A stretch of DNA of 42,795 nt from Planctomycetota bacterium (GTDB taxonomy: Bacteria; Planctomycetota; Planctomycetia; Pirellulales; PLA5): contig QEVJ01000040.1 in the NCBI GenBank assembly GCA_003576845.1, forward strand, positions 1 through 42,795, given 5' to 3'. The notes beneath the pieces were generated by a model. The model had not been told where the DNA came from and made no database searches. It saw only the letters and a list, made by a program, of their open reading frames with translations. Numbering within the stretch: position 1 is the stretch's first letter; every line of letters begins with the position of its first letter. A program made the translations under genes and the position numbers. Below, piece by piece: positions 11,914 to 41,081 of this stretch.

Positions 11914-12050
11914 ACAAATGCAAAAGGCAGAATGCAAAAGGCAAAATGCAGAATGAAGTACGCCAAAGGTGCGGCTAGTAACGGATCATGGCCGGGCGAC
12001 CCTTTTGCATTCTTCATTTTGCATTCTTCATTTCCCTCATTTCCTTCTTC
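11914..12050. repeat. Composite heptad element, AATGCAA/TTGCATT type
   Basis: Six tandem 7-bp units (caaaagg, cagaatg, caaaatg forms) at 11914-11955 are followed by about 46 bp of unique sequence. Complementary units (attcttc, attttgc) then run from 12002 to about 12050. The two arrays are inverted copies and could pair as a stem-loop. The left array touches the start codon of the downstream gene; the right array encodes the last nine or so residues and the stop of the BatA-type gene. Confidence 0.9.
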
Positions 12051-14725
12051 GGCCACGCCAGCGCCGTCATCTCCACTACCAAACACGCCGCCACCGTCGC
12101 CACGAGCCACCACCACAAATTCTGGCCGCGAACCGAGGCGCCTTCGATGCTCACCTGCTCGCCGGACGCGATCCAGCGAAAGTTTTCGATCGCCGCAGTC
12201 TCGCGTCGCAATCGTTCGCGATCCACCGGCGCGAGGAGCGATTCCTCGGCGGGTCCATTGGCCGCAAGCAGCGTCGCCGGCGTCGCCGCACGCTCGTCGG
12301 CCTCGTCCGCAGATGCTTCTGCGGTTTCGCCGCGCTCCGATTGCGCCGCGAGCCGATAAAACCCGCGTTCGTAAATCCCGCCGATCGTCACGCCATACGT
12401 TTCGGCATCGAGCGCCTCGACGTCCTGGACGTGCTTCGCGCCGTCAGGCCGCGTCACCTCGAACGTTCGCTGCTGGTCGTTCGGGTCGATCGGAATCGCC
12501 ACGTCGCGGTCCGTTCCCACGTCGCGCACGGGCAAGGTTCGCTGCAAGCGGCGGCGCATCAGGCGATCCGCGAGAAACATCGTGTACGACGCCGGCCACG
12601 TGTTCCAACCGCTCCGCACGCTGGTGGCGACGAACAGCACGTGTCCGCGGCCGATGCGCCGCTCGACGAGAAAGGGCATACCGTTCGTGAACCGCGCCAG
12701 CACCTGCGGCGCGGCTTGTCGCGCTTGAGCCGTCGCGTCGGCGGCGGGTGGTCCGCTTGACCGCTCCGGTTTCCATGCCAACCACGTCGCCTCGGCGTCG
12801 CGACGCGCTTCGAGCTCGGCATCGCGCGCGGCGGCATCGGCCGCGGAAAGCGTTCCTTCCGTTTCGCGACGCTGCCAGTCGGCGAGCCGCCGCTCCGATT
12901 CTTCGCGGTCGCGAGCGGCATCCGAGAGACGACTCGCCTCGGCGGCAACGAATCGCTCGATGCTCGCGGGACTGGCGTCCACCCGAACCGCCTTGAAGAA
13001 CAACGGATCGCGATAGAATGCCGCCTGCGACTCCGGCGATTCGCCCGCGATGTGGAACTCGTCCTGTCCCGCGAGGCTGTCGAACGCAATGTGAAAGGGT
13101 TCAAGCCGAGCGGGGTCTTCTTCGAGCGCCTGGCCGATCGTGCCGTCGAGGGGAGCGGAAAGAATTCCAGCGCCGTCGCGCCACGCCGCGTTGTTCCACT
13201 TCTGGGCGTCGAACTTCCCGCCGGCGGCGACGATCAACTCGCCCCCTTGCGTCACGTAACCGCGCAGCAGGACAGTTACCGCATCGTCGGGCGCTTCGAT
13301 GCCCGCCGCGACGACCAACCGCGCATCGGCGAGCAATTTACGGTCGAGTTGCCGCGGCGTAACGTGTCGAACGCTGACCAGCGGCGCGGGCGCGGCCGGC
13401 CGAGCGCTCGAGGGTGCGAGAATCCGCCGCAGCGGCTGCGTTTCGCCGAAAACCTGCCGCCCGGCCTGTTCCCCCTCCGCGCCGAGCTCGTCGACGAACA
13501 CGACGGGCAGCGCCGACACAACCGTCGCGGCGAGCGCACGCGAGTCGTCCATCGTCAGCCGGTCGCTCGGCAGCGAAACCCGCACGGGAACGTGCCGCAT
13601 TTCGCCGGGAGCAAGGCTGGTGTCGAACTGGTGGTGAAAGGCAATCTCCCGCGTCGCTCCGTCCTCGAGCCGGTCGATCGTTTGCGAAGCGACCTCTTCG
13701 TCCTCGACCCACAGCGACACCTGCACGTTCTCGCGCGGTTCCCGGCCCGAATACCGCACGCGGGCGATGATCTTCGCGGGACTGAGCGTGTCGGCCACGC
13801 CGTCTTCGAGCTCGACCGACGCGACGGAGGCGTTCGCCGGGTCGGTCGCCGAAACATCGACGACCTGAAACTCCGGCAAATCCGCGATCTGAGCCGCCGC
13901 GCCTTCGGGCCAGTTGATCTCCTGCTGGTCGCCGAACAGCACGACGCGCTTGGCCGCCGCGGGAAACTCTGGCGCCTGCGTACAGGCGTCGCGCGCCAGG
14001 GCGACCGCGGAGGCCACGCTCGCCTGCCGATCGACGGCGGCAATCCGTCCGACGGCGGCCCGTGCGTCGTCCTTGTTAGGATAAGGATCTAGGCCGAATT
14101 GATCGAGCGGACCGCACACCGGCAACACCGCGATGTGGCTCCCTTCGGGCAAGCGGTCGATGAGCGCGAGTGCCCGCGCTTTCGCATCGTCGAGCAGCGA
14201 ACGTTCGAGCGCGTAGGACATGCTCAGGCTGTTGTCGACGAGCAGCACCGCGTGAACGGGTTGCGTCGGGTCGCTCGCGACAACGGACGCTTGCGCGGTC
14301 GTGTCCCAATACGGCTCGGCGCCGTAGTAAATTGCCACGGCGCCGAGACCGACTGCCGCGGTCGTGAGCGCGGCACGTCCCCGCGGCGCCGAGCCAAGCG
14401 TGGCCGCCGCGAGTCCACATGCCAACGCCCCCGCGCCCGCCGGCAATGCGATGCGCCAAGCCAGCGGCGCATCCGCCGGCACGAACGGCCGCGCGAGCGC
14501 TAAGCCGAACAACAGCACGGCGAGCGTTCGCAGCGCCAAGAGCAACAGGTCGCGAAGTTCGAGAATCCGGCGGTTACGGCGGATCGCTTCTCGCAAGAAA
14601 TCCATCGCCGCCCAATGCACGACGCGAAAACGCCGCCGGTTCAACAGATGGATGATGACCGGTCCCGTCGCCGCCGCCGCGCCGGCAATCGCAAACCAGG
14701 CATAGCCGGGCAGGAACTGAAGCAT
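12014..14725 (-). CDS. BatA-type vWA membrane protein (903 aa)
   Basis: The N-terminus is a BatA-type double-transmembrane domain: a first helix at about 8-27, then HLLNRRRFRVVHWAAMDFL, the pattern RRNRRILELRDLLLLALRT and a second helix at about 58-78. Two more hydrophobic segments lie near 95-135. The vWA domain has an intact metal site D-N-S-L-S (residues 164-168). A later segment (LLADARLVVAAGIEAP, then QGGELIVAAGG) resembles the amidotransferase-like fold, and RRIGRGHVLFVATS is typical of this protein class. A C-terminal helix precedes the end. The last nine or so residues (MREMKNAK and neighbours) are encoded by the adjacent 7-bp repeat and are probably not functional. The start MLQFLPGYAWF fits the family; eleven upstream codons are left out. 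Confidence 0.9.
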   Translation of the reverse strand: MLQFLPGYAWFAIAGAAAATGPVIIHLLNRRRFRVVHWAAMDFLREAIRRNRRILELRDLLLLALRTLAVLLFGLALARPFVPADAPLAWRIALPAGAGALACGLAAATLGSAPRGRAALTTAAVGLGAVAIYYGAEPYWDTTAQASVVASDPTQPVHAVLLVDNSLSMSYALERSLLDDAKARALALIDRLPEGSHIAVLPVCGPLDQFGLDPYPNKDDARAAVGRIAAVDRQASVASAVALARDACTQAPEFPAAAKRVVLFGDQQEINWPEGAAAQIADLPEFQVVDVSATDPANASVASVELEDGVADTLSPAKIIARVRYSGREPRENVQVSLWVEDEEVASQTIDRLEDGATREIAFHHQFDTSLAPGEMRHVPVRVSLPSDRLTMDDSRALAATVVSALPVVFVDELGAEGEQAGRQVFGETQPLRRILAPSSARPAAPAPLVSVRHVTPRQLDRKLLADARLVVAAGIEAPDDAVTVLLRGYVTQGGELIVAAGGKFDAQKWNNAAWRDGAGILSAPLDGTIGQALEEDPARLEPFHIAFDSLAGQDEFHIAGESPESQAAFYRDPLFFKAVRVDASPASIERFVAAEASRLSDAARDREESERRLADWQRRETEGTLSAADAAARDAELEARRDAEATWLAWKPERSSGPPAADATAQARQAAPQVLARFTNGMPFLVERRIGRGHVLFVATSVRSGWNTWPASYTMFLADRLMRRRLQRTLPVRDVGTDRDVAIPIDPNDQQRTFEVTRPDGAKHVQDVEALDAETYGVTIGGIYERGFYRLAAQSERGETAEASADEADERAATPATLLAANGPAEESLLAPVDRERLRRETAAIENFRWIASGEQVSIEGASVRGQNLWWWLVATVAACLVVEMTALAWPKKEMREMKNAK

Positions 14726-14774
14726 GAGCGGAGGCAGGAGAAAACGTGGCGGGTGCAACCGGGTCGCGGAAGGG

Positions 14775-35116: not shown

Positions 35117-36511
35117 CTACCGCCCCCCGACAATCAGAAACTCCCCGCTCGGCGAAAACGCCTCGCCCGGCGCAAACGTGTCCGTCTTCACCGGCTCGAT
35201 CAGCGACGTGATGCTGCCCCGCGTCACGAGCCCGATCGGCTTGCCGTTCTCCACCACGACCAGCACCGAGCCGCTCCCGCGCACGAAGAAGTCCATCAAG
35301 TCGTTGAACGACGTTTCGGGCTGATAGCGCGGCACGGTCTTCGACATGACGTCGCGCACACGGCGAGTTTCGCTGTTCCGCCCCGTCGGCAAGTCCGCAA
35401 CCGCATCGTCCGAGAGCAACCCGGCCAGCGCCCCCGATTTCTCCGTGACGGGCAGCGTCGTCGCGCCCGTCCGGCGGAACTTCGCGGCCGCCTGCATCAG
35501 CGTATCGTCCACGTGCAGCGCCGCGGCGCAAGGAATCATCACGTCGCGGGCGGTCGTGTCCTCGAACAGCTTGCCCGGCGCCGCGAGTTCCGTCCACAGC
35601 AATTCTTCATCGGCAAACTGCCCGGAGTGGGCCACGGCGTCCCGGCCCGACGTCTTTGCCGCCACGACCGCCTGCCGTGCCCGGTCGAGAAGCGCGTCGG
35701 CCGATTCGGTCGATTGCCATTCCGCGACGACGCCGCACGATGCGGTTAGGCCGAGCGGGCTTTCCGAGCCGCCCAGTTCGAGCTTCGCGATCTCCTGTCG
35801 GGCAAGTTCCGCCCACGCCACCGCATCCTGGTCGCGCTCGTCACCCAGCCACACGGCGAACCGATCCGCTTCCAGCCGAGCGACCAGATCGTTCGGATCG
35901 GTGAGTTTCTTGAGCAATGCGGCGACGGCCACGAGTGCCCCGTCGGCCGCTTCCCGTCCCGCGACGATCGCCACCCGGCTGAACCAGTCGAGATCGATCA
36001 GCACGAGTCCCGCCGGGCGCGGTTGCGATTGATGGGCCAGCGCGTGCCGCAATTTTTCGACGAAGCCTTCGCGATTCGCCAGATTGGTAAGCGGATCGAC
36101 CCGCGATTGCATCGCGACGCGGCGTTCGACCTCGGCCAGCCGCGCCGCGGAACGCAGCCGCGCGAGAAACTCGCCGTACACGACCGGCTTGATCAGAAAA
36201 TCGTCGACGCCCGCTTCCAGCGCCGACGTGACCGATTCGGCGTCCGCGGCGCCGCCGAACAGCAGGACGTAAGCCTGTTCGCCGCCGTCGCTCCCGCGCA
36301 GACGCCGGCAGAACTCGACGCCCCCTTCGCCGCCGAACGCATCGTCGACCACCACCAGCGCCGGTCGACGCGCCTCCCACGCCGCGAATGCCGCGTCCGG
36401 CTCGGCGGCCGCGCACACGTCGTAGCCGAACTCCTTGAGAAACCGCGAGACGTGCCGGACGAGCTGCGCCTCGTGGGTCGCCAACAGTACGGACAACGGT
36501 TTACCGGCCAT
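35117..36511 (-). CDS. Receiver / degenerate GGDEF / double-CBS protein (464 aa)
   Basis: Residues 1-125 form a response-regulator receiver with phospho-acceptor D56 (ALVVVDDAF) and the conserved Lys in FLIKPV (K108). Residues 135-295 have a GGDEF fold: DPLTNLANREGF and LVLIDLDWFSRV are typical, but the signature reads E-A-D-R-F (214-218) where G-G-D-E-F is expected. Diguanylate cyclase activity is therefore unlikely. Two CBS domains follow (about 312-375 and 390-455; ARDVMIPCAAALHVDDTLMQ and SVLVVVENGKPIGLVTRGSI), which usually bind adenosine nucleotides. It would combine a phosphorylation input with nucleotide sensing. The gene is divergent from the FHA/EAL gene. The start MAGKPLSVLL is set by the receiver; 145 upstream codons are non-coding in appearance. 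No histidine kinase is near. Confidence 0.92.
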   Translation of the reverse strand: MAGKPLSVLLATHEAQLVRHVSRFLKEFGYDVCAAAEPDAAFAAWEARRPALVVVDDAFGGEGGVEFCRRLRGSDGGEQAYVLLFGGAADAESVTSALEAGVDDFLIKPVVYGEFLARLRSAARLAEVERRVAMQSRVDPLTNLANREGFVEKLRHALAHQSQPRPAGLVLIDLDWFSRVAIVAGREAADGALVAVAALLKKLTDPNDLVARLEADRFAVWLGDERDQDAVAWAELARQEIAKLELGGSESPLGLTASCGVVAEWQSTESADALLDRARQAVVAAKTSGRDAVAHSGQFADEELLWTELAAPGKLFEDTTARDVMIPCAAALHVDDTLMQAAAKFRRTGATTLPVTEKSGALAGLLSDDAVADLPTGRNSETRRVRDVMSKTVPRYQPETSFNDLMDFFVRGSGSVLVVVENGKPIGLVTRGSITSLIEPVKTDTFAPGEAFSPSGEFLIVGGR

Positions 36512-36972
36512 ACGATTTCCAGCGCTTGCAATAAGGCGCCGCACCCGCCGCGAAACGGTCCGCGGCCCAATGCGACGTAATAAGACGTGATAGGAATCGG
36601 CCAAGACGTGAGCGCGCGCGGTCCGTCGCGCTTTCATTGCAAACCTATCATACGCAGCCGCCACAACGCCCGAACGCGCCGCGACTTTTTGCCGACCCCG
36701 CTTCCGATCCTCGCGGCGAAGCCGGTTATCGCGAAATTTCGCGTTATGCCGAACGCGAACCGACGTAACGCCCAGGCCAACCCCGCCGGGGGCGAAAACC
36801 GAACCGATCCGGCCGTTTTTCCGGACGCCGAATGCTATGTTTCCAAAGCCGGAGATCCGGCGCTCACTTCGCTTGCGCAAATGATTTGGCGCGATCGGCC
36901 GTACTCGCAATGCCGCGCCCGGCGATGGCCGCCGCGCTCGGCACACTCACTTCAACCGACGGTGCACTTCGT
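36512..36972. other. Divergent control region of the REC-GGDEF-CBS and FHA-EAL genes
   Basis: About 460 bp between two divergent signalling genes. Three GACGT-boxes in the same direction (gacgtaat at 36574, gacgtgat at 36584, gacgtgag at 36605) are spaced 10 and 21 bp apart, one and two helical turns, which would suit a regulator bound to one face of the DNA. No consensus promoter hexamers are clear. No gene is supported. Confidence 0.45.
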
Positions 36973-38103
36973 ATGTCCTCTCGCACGCAAGTCATGCCGG
37001 ATTCCGCCATCGGCGCGCCTTGGCTCGAACGCGAAACGACGTTCGGCGAACCCGCCGAGAAAGTCTGGCTCGCCCAATTTCCCTTCACCATCGGCCGCCA
37101 GGAATCCGCCGACCACTCGATCAACTCGACCCGCGTGTCGCGCGAGCACTGCCGCATCTCGCGAACCAGCAAAGGATTCAAGATCCGCGACTTGGGAAGC
37201 ACCAACGGCACCTACGTTAACGGCGAGCGCATCGACGAAGTCCCACTCGTCGACGGCGACCTCGTCAGCGTCGCCGACATGGAGTTCACCTTCTTTTCCG
37301 GCGAGTCGTCCGCCGTCGACGCGGCAACCCAACGAATCGCGCCCAAGCAGAACAACGCGGCCGACGACGCCGTCGGCGACAGCCTCGTGCAAACCGTCCG
37401 CTGGATGAACGAAACCGTAACGCAGGGCGGATTGCAGACCACCTTTCAACGCATCGTGGCCCTCGAAGGAGGCCAGACCTTCGGCTGGGACGTCGTCGTG
37501 TTCGATCCGGCCGACGCCATCGAACAGGCTGCCCAAGCGCTCCTCGCCGGCACCGATTGCCGCGTCACCCGCCGCGCCCGACAAGTCTCCCGCCTGGTCG
37601 CCGTCGAACGAATCGCCGCCGCACGCGTCGCGGGCCGGGCCTTGCTCCGCGTCGACCCCATCGAGCTGGGCGATCGCAATCTCGCATCCCGCATCGGCAA
37701 GCTCGCAAATCTCCTCGGCCGAGGAAGAATCGTCGTCGATCTCGACGAAAGCGTCACGCACGACGCCCGCGCGTTTCGCGCGTTCTACGAAGCCATGGCC
37801 GAACGCGACGTGGCCGTCTCGCTCCGCGGTTTCGCCGCCGGCCGCGCGCAGATGGCCGACTACGCCGAATGCCCGCCGCAGTTCGTCCGCTTCGCGCCGC
37901 AGATGACCAGCGACCTTCCCGGAAGCTCGCGGCGAAAGAAGCAAGTCCAAGCCGCGATCGAAGCCGCCGGCGAACTCGACGCCCAGATCATCGTCACCAA
38001 CATCGCCGACAACGAACACGCGGAACTATGCCGAGAGTTGGGCTGCCACCTCGCCGTCGGCCCGCTCTACGGCGCAGCCCACCACACGCCGCAAGTCCGG
38101 TAG
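36973..38103 (+). CDS. FHA / degenerate EAL protein (376 aa)
   Basis: Residues 30-110 are an FHA domain, which binds phosphothreonine: FTIGRQESADHSI (G41, R42), RVSREHCRI (S56, H59) and GSTNGTYVNG (N78, G79) are all kept. Residues 150-370 have an EAL-phosphodiesterase fold: FQRIVALEGGQTFGWDVVVF occupies the place of the catalytic E-A-L motif, which here reads D-V-V (173-175), and IVVDLDESV replaces a metal-binding strand. Cyclic-di-GMP hydrolysis is therefore unlikely; binding remains possible. It lies 56 bp before the kinase-tubulin gene on the same strand, so the FHA domain probably reads phosphothreonine made by that kinase. The start MSSRTQVMPD is chosen nearest the FHA domain; upstream ATGs exist in frame. 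Confidence 0.92.
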   Translation: MSSRTQVMPDSAIGAPWLERETTFGEPAEKVWLAQFPFTIGRQESADHSINSTRVSREHCRISRTSKGFKIRDLGSTNGTYVNGERIDEVPLVDGDLVSVADMEFTFFSGESSAVDAATQRIAPKQNNAADDAVGDSLVQTVRWMNETVTQGGLQTTFQRIVALEGGQTFGWDVVVFDPADAIEQAAQALLAGTDCRVTRRARQVSRLVAVERIAAARVAGRALLRVDPIELGDRNLASRIGKLANLLGRGRIVVDLDESVTHDARAFRAFYEAMAERDVAVSLRGFAAGRAQMADYAECPPQFVRFAPQMTSDLPGSSRRKKQVQAAIEAAGELDAQIIVTNIADNEHAELCRELGCHLAVGPLYGAAHHTPQVR

Positions 38104-38120: not shown

Positions 38121-38162
38121 TCCCCCAACCCCTGACTCCCGACCCCTGATCCCCGACCTGTG
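38121..38162. repeat. Heptanucleotide repeat ending in the kinase-tubulin start codon
   Basis: Six 7-bp units (cccccaa, acccctg, actcccg, acccctg, atccccg, acctgtg). The last three bases of the final unit are the GTG start codon of the next gene. The same acccctg/actcccg word is used at 35.1 kb. Confidence 0.88.
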
Positions 38163-41081
38163 TCGCTTCACAACGTTCAAATCTCCGAACCGATCGCCGG
38201 ATATCTGCTCCGCGAGCGGATCGGCGCCGGCGGCTACGGCGAGGTCTGGAAAGCCGACGCGCCCGGCGGCCTCGTCAAGGCCGTCAAGCTCGTCTACGGC
38301 TATCTGAACGAAGAGCGGGCAACCACCGAACTCAAAGCGTTCAACCGCATCAAGCAGGTGCGGCATCCGTTCCTCCTCTCGCTCGAACGCATCGAGGTCG
38401 TCGAAGGCCAACTGGTGATCGTCACCGAATTGGCCGACAGCAGCATGAAGGATTGGTACGAGGAATGCCGCAAGGCGGGCCTGCCCGGCATTCCCCGCGA
38501 CGAGCTCATCGGCTATCTCCGCGACGCCGCCGACGCGCTCGACTACATGTCGAACCACTTCTCGCTGCAACACCTCGACGTCAAGCCCGAAAACCTGCTC
38601 CTCGTCGCCGGGCACGTCAAGGTCGGAGACTTCGGACTCGTGAAAGACCTGCGCGACGGAACCGCGTCGCTCATGCAGGGCATGACCCCGATCTACGCGC
38701 CCCCCGAAGTCTTCGACGGCCGCGCCACGACGCAAAGCGATCAGTACAGCCTGGCGATCGTGTTCCAGGAAATGCTCACCGGGCAATTGCCGTTCCCGGG
38801 ACGGACGCTCGCCCAACTCGCTTCACAACATCTGCACAGTCCGCCGCGCCTCAACATGCTCCCCGCAGCCGATCGGCCGATCATCGGCCGAGCGCTGTCG
38901 AAGGACCCGGCCGCGCGGTTCAAGGATTGCCGCGAGATGGTCGAGTCGCTCGCGACGGCCGGACGCGCGGCCGCCGCCGGCCCAAAGGACGACGCCGACG
39001 AAGCCGAAGTCGGCACGAAATCGATTCTCACCAAAGCCACGGCCGTCTTCGACGGCGGCGCAGCGAAGAAAACCCCGAAGCAATCGCCGCCCCAAGAGGA
39101 AGGCTCGACCCAAGCCTGGCCCGGCGGAATCGGCGAAGACGCGGACGACGACGAGGACGTCCGTCGATCGCGAGCGGTTTCGATTCCGCGATTCAAGCCG
39201 CCGCCGCGCGCCGCTGTCCCAACCTGCGGCGAAGTCATCGAAGCCCAGCTCGAAACGTCGTTTTCGCCGCTGCCGCCCATCGATGCCCCCCAAGGACCCG
39301 CGAAGCTGCGGCCAACGCTGTTCGTCGCCGTCGGCGGCGCGGCAGGCAAGGCGCTGATCCAACTGCGAACGCGGATGGAGGAACGCTTCGGCCAGCTCGA
39401 CGCCGGCTCGGCCGTGCAATTCCTACTCATCGACACCGACACCGCCGCCATGTCGGAATTGATTCGCGGTGGCGATTCGCCGCTGTTGCGCCCGCACGAA
39501 GCGCTCCAAGTGCCGCTGCGACGCACGCAAGACTATCGCGCGAACTCCAAGCGGTTCCTCCAATGGCTCAGTCGCCGTTGGCTCTACAACATTCCGCGCA
39601 GCCAGCTCACCGAGGGCCTGCGCCCGCTCGGCCGATTGGCGTTCGTCGACCACTTCGACGATATCCGCCGCCGCATCGAAAACGCCCTCGACGCGATGGC
39701 CTCGCCCGAAGCCCTCGCAGCCCTCGCCGAACGAGCCGCCGCGCAGGTCGCAGCCGACGAACCGCGCGTCGTCGTGCTCGCGGCGATTTCGGGCGGCACC
39801 GGCGGTGGTATGGTTTTCGACGTGGCCTACACGGCACGCCGCCTGCTCGAACAACGAAACCTCTCCGACCGCTTCGTCACCGGAGTGCTGATCCATTCGA
39901 CCGACTGGCACGCGACCAACCGCGAGCTCGCCATCACGAACGCATACGGCTCGATCGCCGAACTCTACCACTACATGAGCAACGGCGGACAATATCCCGG
40001 CGACACGATCTGCGGTCTGCCCCCGCGGACCGAAGACGGGGCGCCCTTCGCCGAAACCTATCTCGTCCACTTGGGCGACAGCCTCAGCAACGAAGACTAC
40101 CAGCAGCAGCTCGACAACGTAGCCGAGTATTTGTACCGCGACACCGCGACCGCGGCGTCGGCGACGCTCGATGCCTGCCGCCAGCAAAGCGTGCGGCGCT
40201 CGACGCAATCCAAGTTCGACGTGTTCGTGCGGACGTTCGGCCTGGTGCACTGCCGCGTCGCGCCTTCCGATGCGACCGCCGCGGTCGAGAAGCTTTGCAA
40301 GTCGGTGATTGCGGACATCTTCGGAGCGCCGGCCCAACGCGACGCTTCCGCCGCCGCCGAGACTTCCGGCTGGTCCCGGCGGGCACGGGGCGAAGCGCTC
40401 TCCACGCGCGCCGCCAAACACCTCGACAGCCTGCTCCAACCGATCAAGAAGAGCGAGTCGGCCGAAGACGCCGGCGCCGTGTCCCGCACCCTCGTCGCAA
40501 CCGCGCTCGACGAAGCCCTCGCGCCCGTCGCCGCCGAGCTCGTCGATGCCCATCGCGCGGCCGCATCCGAAGCCGAGATGCTCGCCGCCGCCGGCGCCCT
40601 GGGAACACAGGTCGAAGCGATTGTCGGCGAAGTCTTTGCGGCGGCCCAGCAGAAGGTCGCCGAAGCCGCGCGGCGCCTCGACCTCGCGGCGCTCGTCCGC
40701 TCGCAGCATCAAGACGAGCAGCGCACGATTCCACTGTTGCCCGCCTGGGTCGATCGCGCCACGCCTTGCCTTCCCGGCGGCGCGGCCGCGCGGCGGTTGG
40801 TCGTGTGCGCCTCCGCAGAATCGTCCGCCCAGGAACTTTGCCAATCGATCGAGCAACTTTGCGGCCAAACGTCGAATCTGGTCACGGGCGACGATGCGGG
40901 CCTGGCCCTGATCTACGAAACCGAGCAGGTTTCGCTCGCCCAATTCGCGGCCGGAATCGCCGAATATCGCAGCGAATACGCCGACGTCGCCCGCCGCCTG
41001 CACACCCGCGTCGACATCGAATGGGCGCCGCTCCCCGACGTCCGCCCCGCCGCGCCCCAACCGCCGCCGACGCCGCAATGA
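38160..41081 (+). CDS. Ser/Thr protein kinase fused to a tubulin/FtsZ-like GTPase domain (973 aa)
   Basis: Residues 1-275 are a Hanks-type kinase: glycine loop IGAGGYGEVW (21-30), K43, HLDVKPEN (138-145; Leu replaces the usual Arg of H-R-D, so a non-RD kinase), DFG (157-159), APPE (180-183). Catalytic Lys and both Asp are present, so activity is expected. A charged, Pro-rich linker follows to about 380. From 384 on the sequence has nucleotide-binding loops of the tubulin superfamily: VGGAAGKAL (391-399), LLIDTD (422-427) and the tubulin signature GGTGGG (545-550). This matches the tubulin-like (Tubulin_2) group. No clear N-x-D-x-x-D catalytic loop is seen, so GTP hydrolysis is uncertain. No membrane helix. 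The start is GTG, formed by the last unit of a heptad repeat, with no Shine-Dalgarno sequence. It likely works with the upstream FHA protein. Confidence 0.88.
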   Translation: MSLHNVQISEPIAGYLLRERIGAGGYGEVWKADAPGGLVKAVKLVYGYLNEERATTELKAFNRIKQVRHPFLLSLERIEVVEGQLVIVTELADSSMKDWYEECRKAGLPGIPRDELIGYLRDAADALDYMSNHFSLQHLDVKPENLLLVAGHVKVGDFGLVKDLRDGTASLMQGMTPIYAPPEVFDGRATTQSDQYSLAIVFQEMLTGQLPFPGRTLAQLASQHLHSPPRLNMLPAADRPIIGRALSKDPAARFKDCREMVESLATAGRAAAAGPKDDADEAEVGTKSILTKATAVFDGGAAKKTPKQSPPQEEGSTQAWPGGIGEDADDDEDVRRSRAVSIPRFKPPPRAAVPTCGEVIEAQLETSFSPLPPIDAPQGPAKLRPTLFVAVGGAAGKALIQLRTRMEERFGQLDAGSAVQFLLIDTDTAAMSELIRGGDSPLLRPHEALQVPLRRTQDYRANSKRFLQWLSRRWLYNIPRSQLTEGLRPLGRLAFVDHFDDIRRRIENALDAMASPEALAALAERAAAQVAADEPRVVVLAAISGGTGGGMVFDVAYTARRLLEQRNLSDRFVTGVLIHSTDWHATNRELAITNAYGSIAELYHYMSNGGQYPGDTICGLPPRTEDGAPFAETYLVHLGDSLSNEDYQQQLDNVAEYLYRDTATAASATLDACRQQSVRRSTQSKFDVFVRTFGLVHCRVAPSDATAAVEKLCKSVIADIFGAPAQRDASAAAETSGWSRRARGEALSTRAAKHLDSLLQPIKKSESAEDAGAVSRTLVATALDEALAPVAAELVDAHRAAASEAEMLAAAGALGTQVEAIVGEVFAAAQQKVAEAARRLDLAALVRSQHQDEQRTIPLLPAWVDRATPCLPGGAAARRLVVCASAESSAQELCQSIEQLCGQTSNLVTGDDAGLALIYETEQVSLAQFAAGIAEYRSEYADVARRLHTRVDIEWAPLPDVRPAAPQPPPTPQ

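What the first reader, a model, noticed from the sequence alone, without database searches (positions are those of the whole stretch)
38160..41081. One polypeptide joins a non-RD Ser/Thr kinase to a tubulin/FtsZ-like domain
The kinase half has a full catalytic set (K43, D140, DFG 157-159) but H-L-D instead of H-R-D. The second half carries three tubulin-superfamily loops in order (GGAAGK at 392-397, IDTD at 424-427, GGTGGG at 545-550). Tubulin-like domains of this group are known in bacteria, but their role is poorly understood. A covalent kinase link suggests that phosphorylation and a GTP-driven polymer or switch are coupled. No N-x-D-x-x-D loop was found, so it may bind GTP without hydrolysing it.
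Basis: partly seen in the sequence, partly recalled or inferred. Interest (0 to 1): 0.85.

Follow-up and report, generated by a model that had tools for sequence, protein, structure and literature searches.

The report
Kinase–tubulin fusion in a conserved module
The gene makes one protein that joins an enzyme that phosphorylates proteins to a tubulin-like (cytoskeleton-type) domain; this combination was reported in the same group of bacteria in 2010, but it turns out to be inherited with the same partner genes, which gives a testable idea of what it does.

Summary
One 973-residue ORF (38160-41081, +) carries an intact, non-RD (H-L-D) Ser/Thr kinase (Pfam 1.3e-28) and a Tubulin_2/FtsZl1 domain (8.8e-38). 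An AlphaFold model of residues 378-973 (pLDDT 88.9, pTM 0.89) matches only tubulins and FtsZs among its top 50 PDB hits. The architecture is not new: Makarova & Koonin (2010) reported N-terminal kinases on four planctomycete FtsZl1 proteins, and papers of 2023 and 2024 repeat it. What I did not find described is the company it keeps. In its order (Pirellulales) it sits beside an FHA-EAL protein (72 of 78 loci), a distinct AAA+ ATPase subfamily (51 loci) and a degenerate GGDEF regulator (about 30 loci). Across 58 genomes the AAA+ subfamily co-occurs perfectly (25/25 versus 0/33) and FHA-EAL nearly so (24/25 versus 1/33). FHA-EAL, AAA+ and kinase-tubulin are also adjacent in a genome of another order. 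None of the 58 genomes encodes canonical FtsZ. Best reading: a GTP-regulated scaffold or filament carries a constitutively competent kinase, the FHA protein reads its phosphothreonines, and the AAA+ enzyme remodels the assembly. Polymerisation, GTP use and phosphorylation are inferred, not shown.

The parts
38160..41081 (+). kinase-tubulin fusion protein, 973 aa
   Evidence: homologues
38208..38918 (+). Ser/Thr kinase domain, residues 17-253
   Evidence: Pfam PF00069 1.3e-28; nearest solved kinase PKMYT1, which shares H-L-D-V-K-P, 2.2e-21
38571..38579 (+). non-RD catalytic triad H138-L139-D140
   Evidence: HLD[VI]KP in all 75 assessable homologues; in this genome 23 HRD-type sites against 2 HLD-type sites
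38628..38636 (+). DFG motif, residues 157-159
38973..39293 (+). low-complexity linker, about residues 272-378, not conserved in sequence
   Evidence: lengths vary, no shared motif
39318..40244 (+). Tubulin_2 / FtsZl1 GTP-binding domain, residues 387-695
   Evidence: Pfam PF13809 8.8e-38; AF2 model and Foldseek
39333..39350 (+). T1-like loop GGAAGK, residues 392-397
   Evidence: G392 invariant in 70 sequences
39429..39440 (+). T2-like loop IDTD, residues 424-427
   Evidence: D425 97%, D427 89%
39573..39641 (+). family signature RRWLYNIPRSxxTEGLRPLGRLA, residues 472-494, between T2 and T4
   Evidence: invariant block in 70 sequences; RRWLYNIP was also the search pattern, but the independently found Tubulin_2 set has it too, with two one-residue variants
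39792..39809 (+). T4-like glycine loop GGTGGG, residues 545-550
   Evidence: G545 100%, G546 99%
40371..40712 (+). helical insert, residues 738-851
   Evidence: AF2 secondary structure, model residues 361-474
40788..41024 (+). C-terminal beta-sheet region and conserved RLHTRxDxxW, residues 877-955; read as the second half of an FtsZ-type C-terminal domain
   Evidence: AF2 strands 500-508, 528-533, 538-548 of the model; R950 99%, D952 97%, W955 99%; many Foldseek alignments run over about 570 columns
36832..38103 (+). FHA-EAL protein, ends 56 bases before the kinase-tubulin start codon; true start probably internal
   Evidence: Pfam FHA 2.4e-19, EAL 4.7e-18; relative in 72 of 78 loci
35117..36946 (-). 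response regulator - degenerate GGDEF - CBS protein, divergently transcribed neighbour; true start probably internal
   Evidence: Pfam; relatives beside about 30 loci; GGDEF motif reads EADRF here and is G-x-x-R-F in most relatives

Best explanation
It is a planctomycete member of the FtsZl1 (Tubulin_2) branch of the tubulin superfamily with an N-terminal eukaryote-like kinase, and it is the core of a conserved signalling module. Shown: two intact domains; a tubulin/FtsZ fold (predicted with high confidence); an invariant non-RD kinase; conserved neighbours and co-inheritance with an AAA+ ATPase and an FHA-EAL protein. Inferred: the tubulin-like domain binds GTP and clusters or polymerises the protein; because the kinase is non-RD it should not need activation-loop phosphorylation, so clustering or the nucleotide state of the tubulin domain sets its output; it phosphorylates threonines on itself or partners; the FHA domain of the neighbouring protein binds those phosphothreonines and brings in an EAL platform (catalytically degenerate in this genome's neighbour copy), linking the assembly to c-di-GMP signalling; the AAA+ enzyme loads or takes apart the assembly. 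Probability that the identity (kinase-FtsZl1 fusion, core of a co-inherited gene set) is right: about 0.95. Probability of the mechanism in outline: about 0.4.
For: Domains. Fold: pLDDT 88.9, pTM 0.89; top 50 PDB hits all tubulin/FtsZ; viral library top hit PhuZ. Kinase catalytic set conserved: K, E, HLDVKPEN, DFG and an activation segment S..GGLTP.Y..PE. FHA phosphopeptide-binding residues G, R, S, H and N conserved in 68-69 of 69 rows. Neighbours: FHA-EAL 72 of 78 loci, AAA+ 51, GGDEF about 30. Co-occurrence over 58 genomes: AAA+ subfamily A 25/25 against 0/33, p 6e-17; FHA-EAL 24/25 against 1/33, p 5e-14; the p-values ignore shared ancestry, but 7 of 20 families are mixed for presence. In genomes with two kinase-tubulins the second copy again has AAA+ and FHA-EAL in order (G024, G032, G039, G048). 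In G344, of another order, FHA-EAL, AAA+ and kinase-tubulin are consecutive on one strand. G005 lacks both the kinase domain and an FHA-EAL gene but keeps tubulin and AAA+, as expected if FHA reads the kinase's product; its family-mate G023 has both.
Against: No biochemical data; GTP binding, polymerisation and phosphorylation are untested. No T7 catalytic loop. No conserved FHA-type phosphothreonine motif was found in the linker, so the FHA target is unknown. FHA-EAL also occurs without a kinase-tubulin in G052 and in three genomes of a sister order. The G005 case is a single draft assembly. In this genome the AAA+ gene is on another contig. AAA+ acting on the tubulin is a guess from co-inheritance.
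Confidence: 0.42

Rival explanations
1. It is a GTP-dependent switch rather than a filament: the tubulin-like domain binds GTP, never polymerises, and controls the attached kinase intramolecularly.
For: No T7 loop or conserved acidic catalytic residue; a large helical insert splits the C-terminal half; the family is too diverged for a filament interface to be recognised (PMC2875224).
Against: The whole two-domain FtsZ-like fold appears to be kept, which a simple switch would not need; the co-inherited AAA+ ATPase suggests an assembly that has to be remodelled.
Confidence: 0.3
2. It belongs to a defence or conflict system, as proposed for other tubulin-containing operons (eLife 2020), with the kinase as the activating or effector part.
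For: Best PADLOC match of the kinase is MAD6 at 1e-41, followed by PD-T4-6 kinases; tubulin homologues occur in GTPase-centred predicted conflict systems (PMC7159879); the distribution is patchy, 25 of 58 genomes.
Against: PADLOC matches cover only the generic kinase domain; the tubulin tree largely follows host families; partners are uniform signalling proteins, not variable effectors; no plasmid match covers most of the tubulin part, and phage matches are to the kinase alone; the GAP1/FNIII partners of those systems were not seen beside the window gene.
Confidence: 0.1
3. It replaces FtsZ in cell division of FtsZ-less planctomycetes.
For: None of 58 genomes encodes canonical FtsZ (PF00091 0/58, controls 13/14), and in this genome the fusion is the only tubulin-superfamily protein found.
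Against: 33 of 58 genomes lack the fusion and AAA+ A, yet these organisms divide.
Confidence: 0.05
4. It is the planctomycete form of the FtsZl1 membrane-remodelling system of Makarova and Koonin, with the kinase fused instead of encoded next door.
For: Same family, and kinases are frequent operon partners of FtsZl1 genes elsewhere (PMC2875224).
Against: The other described partners (vWA protein, divergent GTPase, OmpA) were not seen near the window gene: the nearest vWA domain is 23 kb away in a BatA-type gene; here the partners are FHA-EAL, AAA+ and GGDEF.
Confidence: 0.13

Closest known systems
FtsZl1 / Tubulin_2 (PF13809) proteins with an N-terminal kinase in Planctomycetes (Makarova & Koonin 2010, PMC2875224; PMC9871819 of 2023; kinase survey 2024, PMC11032199)
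   Same: Same architecture, same phylum; Blastopirellula marina DSM 3645, a species in the 2010 alignment, was recovered here with the fusion (L084).
   Different: Those papers give the architecture; in the texts I could search I found no mention of FHA-EAL or GGDEF partners or of this AAA+ partner (supplementary files were not readable). The 2010 paper could not find the T6-H7 and C-terminal elements; the model here suggests an FtsZ-like C-terminal sheet after a helical insert.
FtsZ and tubulin (PF00091)
   Same: Fold; T1, T2 and T4 loops in order.
   Different: Sequence similarity nearly gone (E 0.35), no T7 loop, helical insert, kinase fused, below PF00091 detection.
PKMYT1-type non-RD kinases
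   Same: Nearest solved kinase by sequence, with the same H-L-D-V-K-P loop and DFGL.
   Different: Bacterial, fused to tubulin; no evidence for the same substrates; the resemblance may be convergent.
GTPase-tubulin conflict systems (eLife 2020, PMC7159879)
   Same: Bacterial tubulin homologues proposed to form multimeric assemblies.
   Different: Different partners: no GAP1 GTPase or FNIII proteins seen next to the window gene.

Membership tests
FtsZl1 / Tubulin_2 (PF13809) | match to the family profile above the curated cut-off | tested here: met
   130.9 bits against 27
FtsZl1 / Tubulin_2 (PF13809) | tubulin/FtsZ fold | tested here: met
   AF2 + Foldseek, top 50 hits all tubulin/FtsZ, probability 1.00, TM normalised to target up to 0.59
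FtsZl1 / Tubulin_2 (PF13809) | extended coiled coil, then mostly helical C-terminal domain | tested here: inconclusive
   long helices at residues 738-851 are predicted, but a beta-sheet follows; coiled coil not tested
FtsZl1 membrane-remodelling operon | vWA, divergent GTPase or OmpA genes next door | tested here: not met
   not seen near the window gene by Pfam; not tested exhaustively in the other loci
FtsZ/tubulin proper (PF00091) | profile match | tested here: not met
   PF00091 0/58 genomes including this one, controls 13/14
FtsZ/tubulin proper (PF00091) | T7 catalytic loop N-x-D-x-x-D | tested here: not met
   absent here; only scattered matches in a few relatives
FtsZ/tubulin proper (PF00091) | GTP binding, hydrolysis and polymerisation | not testable with these tools
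   needs purified protein
Active eukaryote-like Ser/Thr kinase | glycine loop, Lys, alpha-C Glu, HxD, Asn, DFG, APE | tested here: met
   conserved in 76 aligned rows; P-P-E in place of A-P-E in the window protein
RD kinases | Arg in the HRD motif | tested here: not met
   HLD in every assessable homologue: a non-RD kinase
Active EAL phosphodiesterase (FHA-EAL neighbour) | E, N, E, D, D, K, E, Q catalytic set | tested here: not met
   all eight replaced in the window copy; its genus-mate L031 shows the same replacements at the sites compared; roughly half of the family keeps them
GTPase-tubulin conflict system | GAP1-N GTPase, FNIII or vWA partners | tested here: not met
   none among the Pfam-scanned neighbours of the window gene

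The most novel reading that the evidence does not exclude
The kinase-tubulin is the core of an undescribed bacterial machine in FtsZ-less planctomycetes: a kinase mounted on a tubulin-like assembly, read out by an FHA-EAL protein and remodelled by a dedicated AAA+ ATPase, which together tie cytoskeletal state to phospho- and c-di-GMP signalling.
Probability: 0.42. Interest if true: 0.78.

Novelty: new member of a known kind. Interest (0 to 1): 0.52.

Why it matters
FtsZl1 proteins have been known since 2010 and I found no experimental function for them. Planctomycetes of this kind lack FtsZ, and their cell organisation is a long-standing puzzle. A covalent kinase link, plus partner genes that are inherited together with it, turns a vague 'tubulin-like protein' into a testable gene module, with cultured hosts that carry it (Blastopirellula marina, Lacipirellula limnantheis, Botrimarina hoheduenensis, Adhaeretor mobilis).

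Tried and rejected
A single-sequence fold of the whole protein gave a useless model (pLDDT 37.5) and was discarded. A sequence search of the PDB with the tubulin part alone found nothing; only the profile gave weak FtsZ matches. A phosphothreonine (FHA-target) motif was sought in the linker and not found. The first FHA-EAL co-occurrence count used the window's divergent copy and showed no exception outside the module genomes (24/25 against 0/33); repeating it with a canonical copy found one exception in the order (G052) and FHA-EAL without kinase-tubulin in a sister order, so the claim was weakened. The AAA+ family has two subfamilies of overlapping score; a tree was needed to show that the widespread one is a separate clade, 100/100. 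FtsZ replacement was rejected because 33 of 58 genomes lack the gene.

Full report
WHAT IS THERE. The ORF at 38160-41081 (+) codes for 973 residues. Pfam gives Pkinase at 17-253 (1.3e-28) and Tubulin_2 at 387-695 (8.8e-38, 131 bits against a cut-off of 27). The two domains are joined by about 100 residues of low-complexity linker that is not conserved in sequence.

IS IT REAL AND CONSERVED. A Pfam-based search of 58 genomes (this one and 57 relatives) found Tubulin_2 in 28; 25 of these carry the type described here. Of the 30 loci fetched, 26 have the kinase in the same frame, always with H-L-D. A separate scan of one genome for each of 84,980 species with the most conserved peptide, RRWLYNIP, gave 77 loci, nearly all titled as Pirellulales or other planctomycetes (a few metagenome bins are labelled otherwise or only 'bacterium'). 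The kinase, again H-L-D, is present in all 75 whose contig reaches that far. This scan is biased towards the clade that owns the peptide; the Pfam search is not. In a phylum-wide sample of 294 genomes Tubulin_2 is rare (14). Of the seven loci fetched from outside the order only one (L115, genome G344, same class) shows the fusion, though some of the others start at a contig end.

THE KINASE. It is catalytically complete: glycine loop, K43, the conserved Glu, HLDVKPEN, DFG, and a conserved activation segment. The missing Arg is a fixed family trait, not a one-off. This genome has 23 HRD-type kinase sites and only two HLD-type sites by DNA pattern. The closest solved kinase is human PKMYT1, which shares HLDVKP. 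From general knowledge, non-RD kinases usually do not depend on phosphorylation of the activation loop; control must then come from elsewhere, and the attached tubulin domain is the obvious candidate (inference).

THE TUBULIN PART. Sequence alone is weak evidence (profile against FtsZ E 0.35), but the order of T1, T2 and T4 is the FtsZ order. An AlphaFold2 model of residues 378-973 built on 70 homologues has pLDDT 88.9 and pTM 0.89. Foldseek against the PDB lists only tubulins and FtsZs in the top 50, probability 1.00, best E 6e-6, TM-score normalised to target up to 0.59. Against viral models the top match is PhuZ. Makarova and Koonin could not place T6-H7 or the C-terminal domain in this family. 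The model shows three late strands (residues 877-925) after a helical insert (738-851), and many alignments run through both, so I read this as an FtsZ-type C-terminal domain split by the insert. No T7-like acidic motif is conserved, so polymer-stimulated hydrolysis of the FtsZ kind is not predicted.

PRIOR KNOWLEDGE. The fusion is not new. Makarova and Koonin (2010, PMC2875224) wrote that four planctomycete FtsZl1 proteins have an additional N-terminal kinase domain. PMC9871819 (2023) repeats it. [quoted passage not shown] No experimental work on it turned up in the library.

THE NEIGHBOURHOOD. Clustering all ORFs around 77 loci and the window gave three main recurring partner families. (a) An FHA-EAL protein in 72 of 78 loci; in the window it ends 56 bases before the fusion. 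(b) An AAA+ ATPase of about 460 residues, extremely conserved, next to or near the fusion in 51 loci. (c) A response regulator-GGDEF-CBS protein in about 30 loci; in the window it is divergently transcribed, just beyond FHA-EAL. In the window copy of FHA-EAL the FHA pocket residues are kept, while the EAL catalytic set is entirely replaced; about half of the family keeps it. The GGDEF motif is degenerate here and in most relatives. This genome also has a second FHA-EAL gene, closer to the canonical type, elsewhere (C192).

CO-INHERITANCE. The AAA+ family has a widespread subfamily B that forms its own clade (100/100, long branch) and a subfamily A that holds the module copies. Subfamily A occurs in exactly the 25 genomes with the module-type tubulin and in none of the other 33, even though 7 of the 20 families are mixed for presence. 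In this genome the A copy is on another contig. FHA-EAL occurs in 24 of the 25 and in 1 of the 33 (G052). The Fisher p-values (6e-17, 5e-14) overstate the case because genomes share ancestry. Genomes with two fusions have a second AAA+ and FHA-EAL beside the second fusion (G024, G032, G039, G048). In G344, of a different order, FHA-EAL, AAA+ and the fusion are consecutive on one strand. In the sister order FHA-EAL also occurs without the fusion (G249, G081, G193), so FHA-EAL has uses outside the module.

A NATURAL EXPERIMENT. G005 keeps the tubulin and AAA+ A, side by side, but the tubulin has no kinase and no full FHA-EAL was found in the genome. Its family-mate G023 has kinase and FHA-EAL, and the two tubulins group together (94/69). 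Loss of the kinase together with the FHA reader is what phospho-dependent recruitment predicts. It is one case in one draft assembly.

HOW IT LIKELY WORKS. Shown: domains, fold prediction, conservation, gene partners. Inferred, in decreasing order of confidence: GTP or GDP binding by the tubulin part; self-association; kinase output set by that association rather than by the activation loop; FHA binding of the phosphothreonines; EAL/GGDEF as c-di-GMP-linked platforms; AAA+ as loader or disassembler. FtsZ is absent from all 58 genomes, so the fusion is the only tubulin-like protein found in this cell, but more than half of the sampled order lives without it, so it is not a general division protein.

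VERDICT. Observation confirmed; interpretation partly supported; architecture already known; the co-inherited module is the part worth following.

Noticed in passing
G000:C186 (L119) and relatives: AAA+ subfamily B, near-universal in the order and about 54% identical to the module ATPase; in this genome it lies beside RimK-like and methenyl-H4MPT cyclohydrolase (MCH) genes.
   Followed up: partly
window 36832-38103: The FHA-EAL neighbour has lost every EAL catalytic residue in this genus (window and L031), although a paralogue closer to the canonical type is kept elsewhere in the genome (C192:175628-176728).
   Followed up: partly
L090, L091, L093, L095, L100: A second form of kinase-tubulin, mostly with a shortened C-terminal part, whose AAA+ partners form their own clade; several genomes hold both forms, each with its own AAA+ and FHA-EAL.
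   Followed up: partly
L027, L028 and G039:C2:1569566-1569916: A separate family of about 710-730 residues that matches only the middle of Tubulin_2 and shows no kinase; one member (L027) shares the RPLGRLA block.
   Followed up: no
L108 (Thermus oshimai plasmid pTHEOS01): A Tubulin_2 gene without kinase follows a vWA gene and a TROVE-domain gene, with brxL a little downstream: a quite different context for the same family.
   Followed up: no
window 12014-14758 (-): BatA/vWA gene 23 kb from the fusion; probably an unrelated Bat-type cluster.
   Followed up: no
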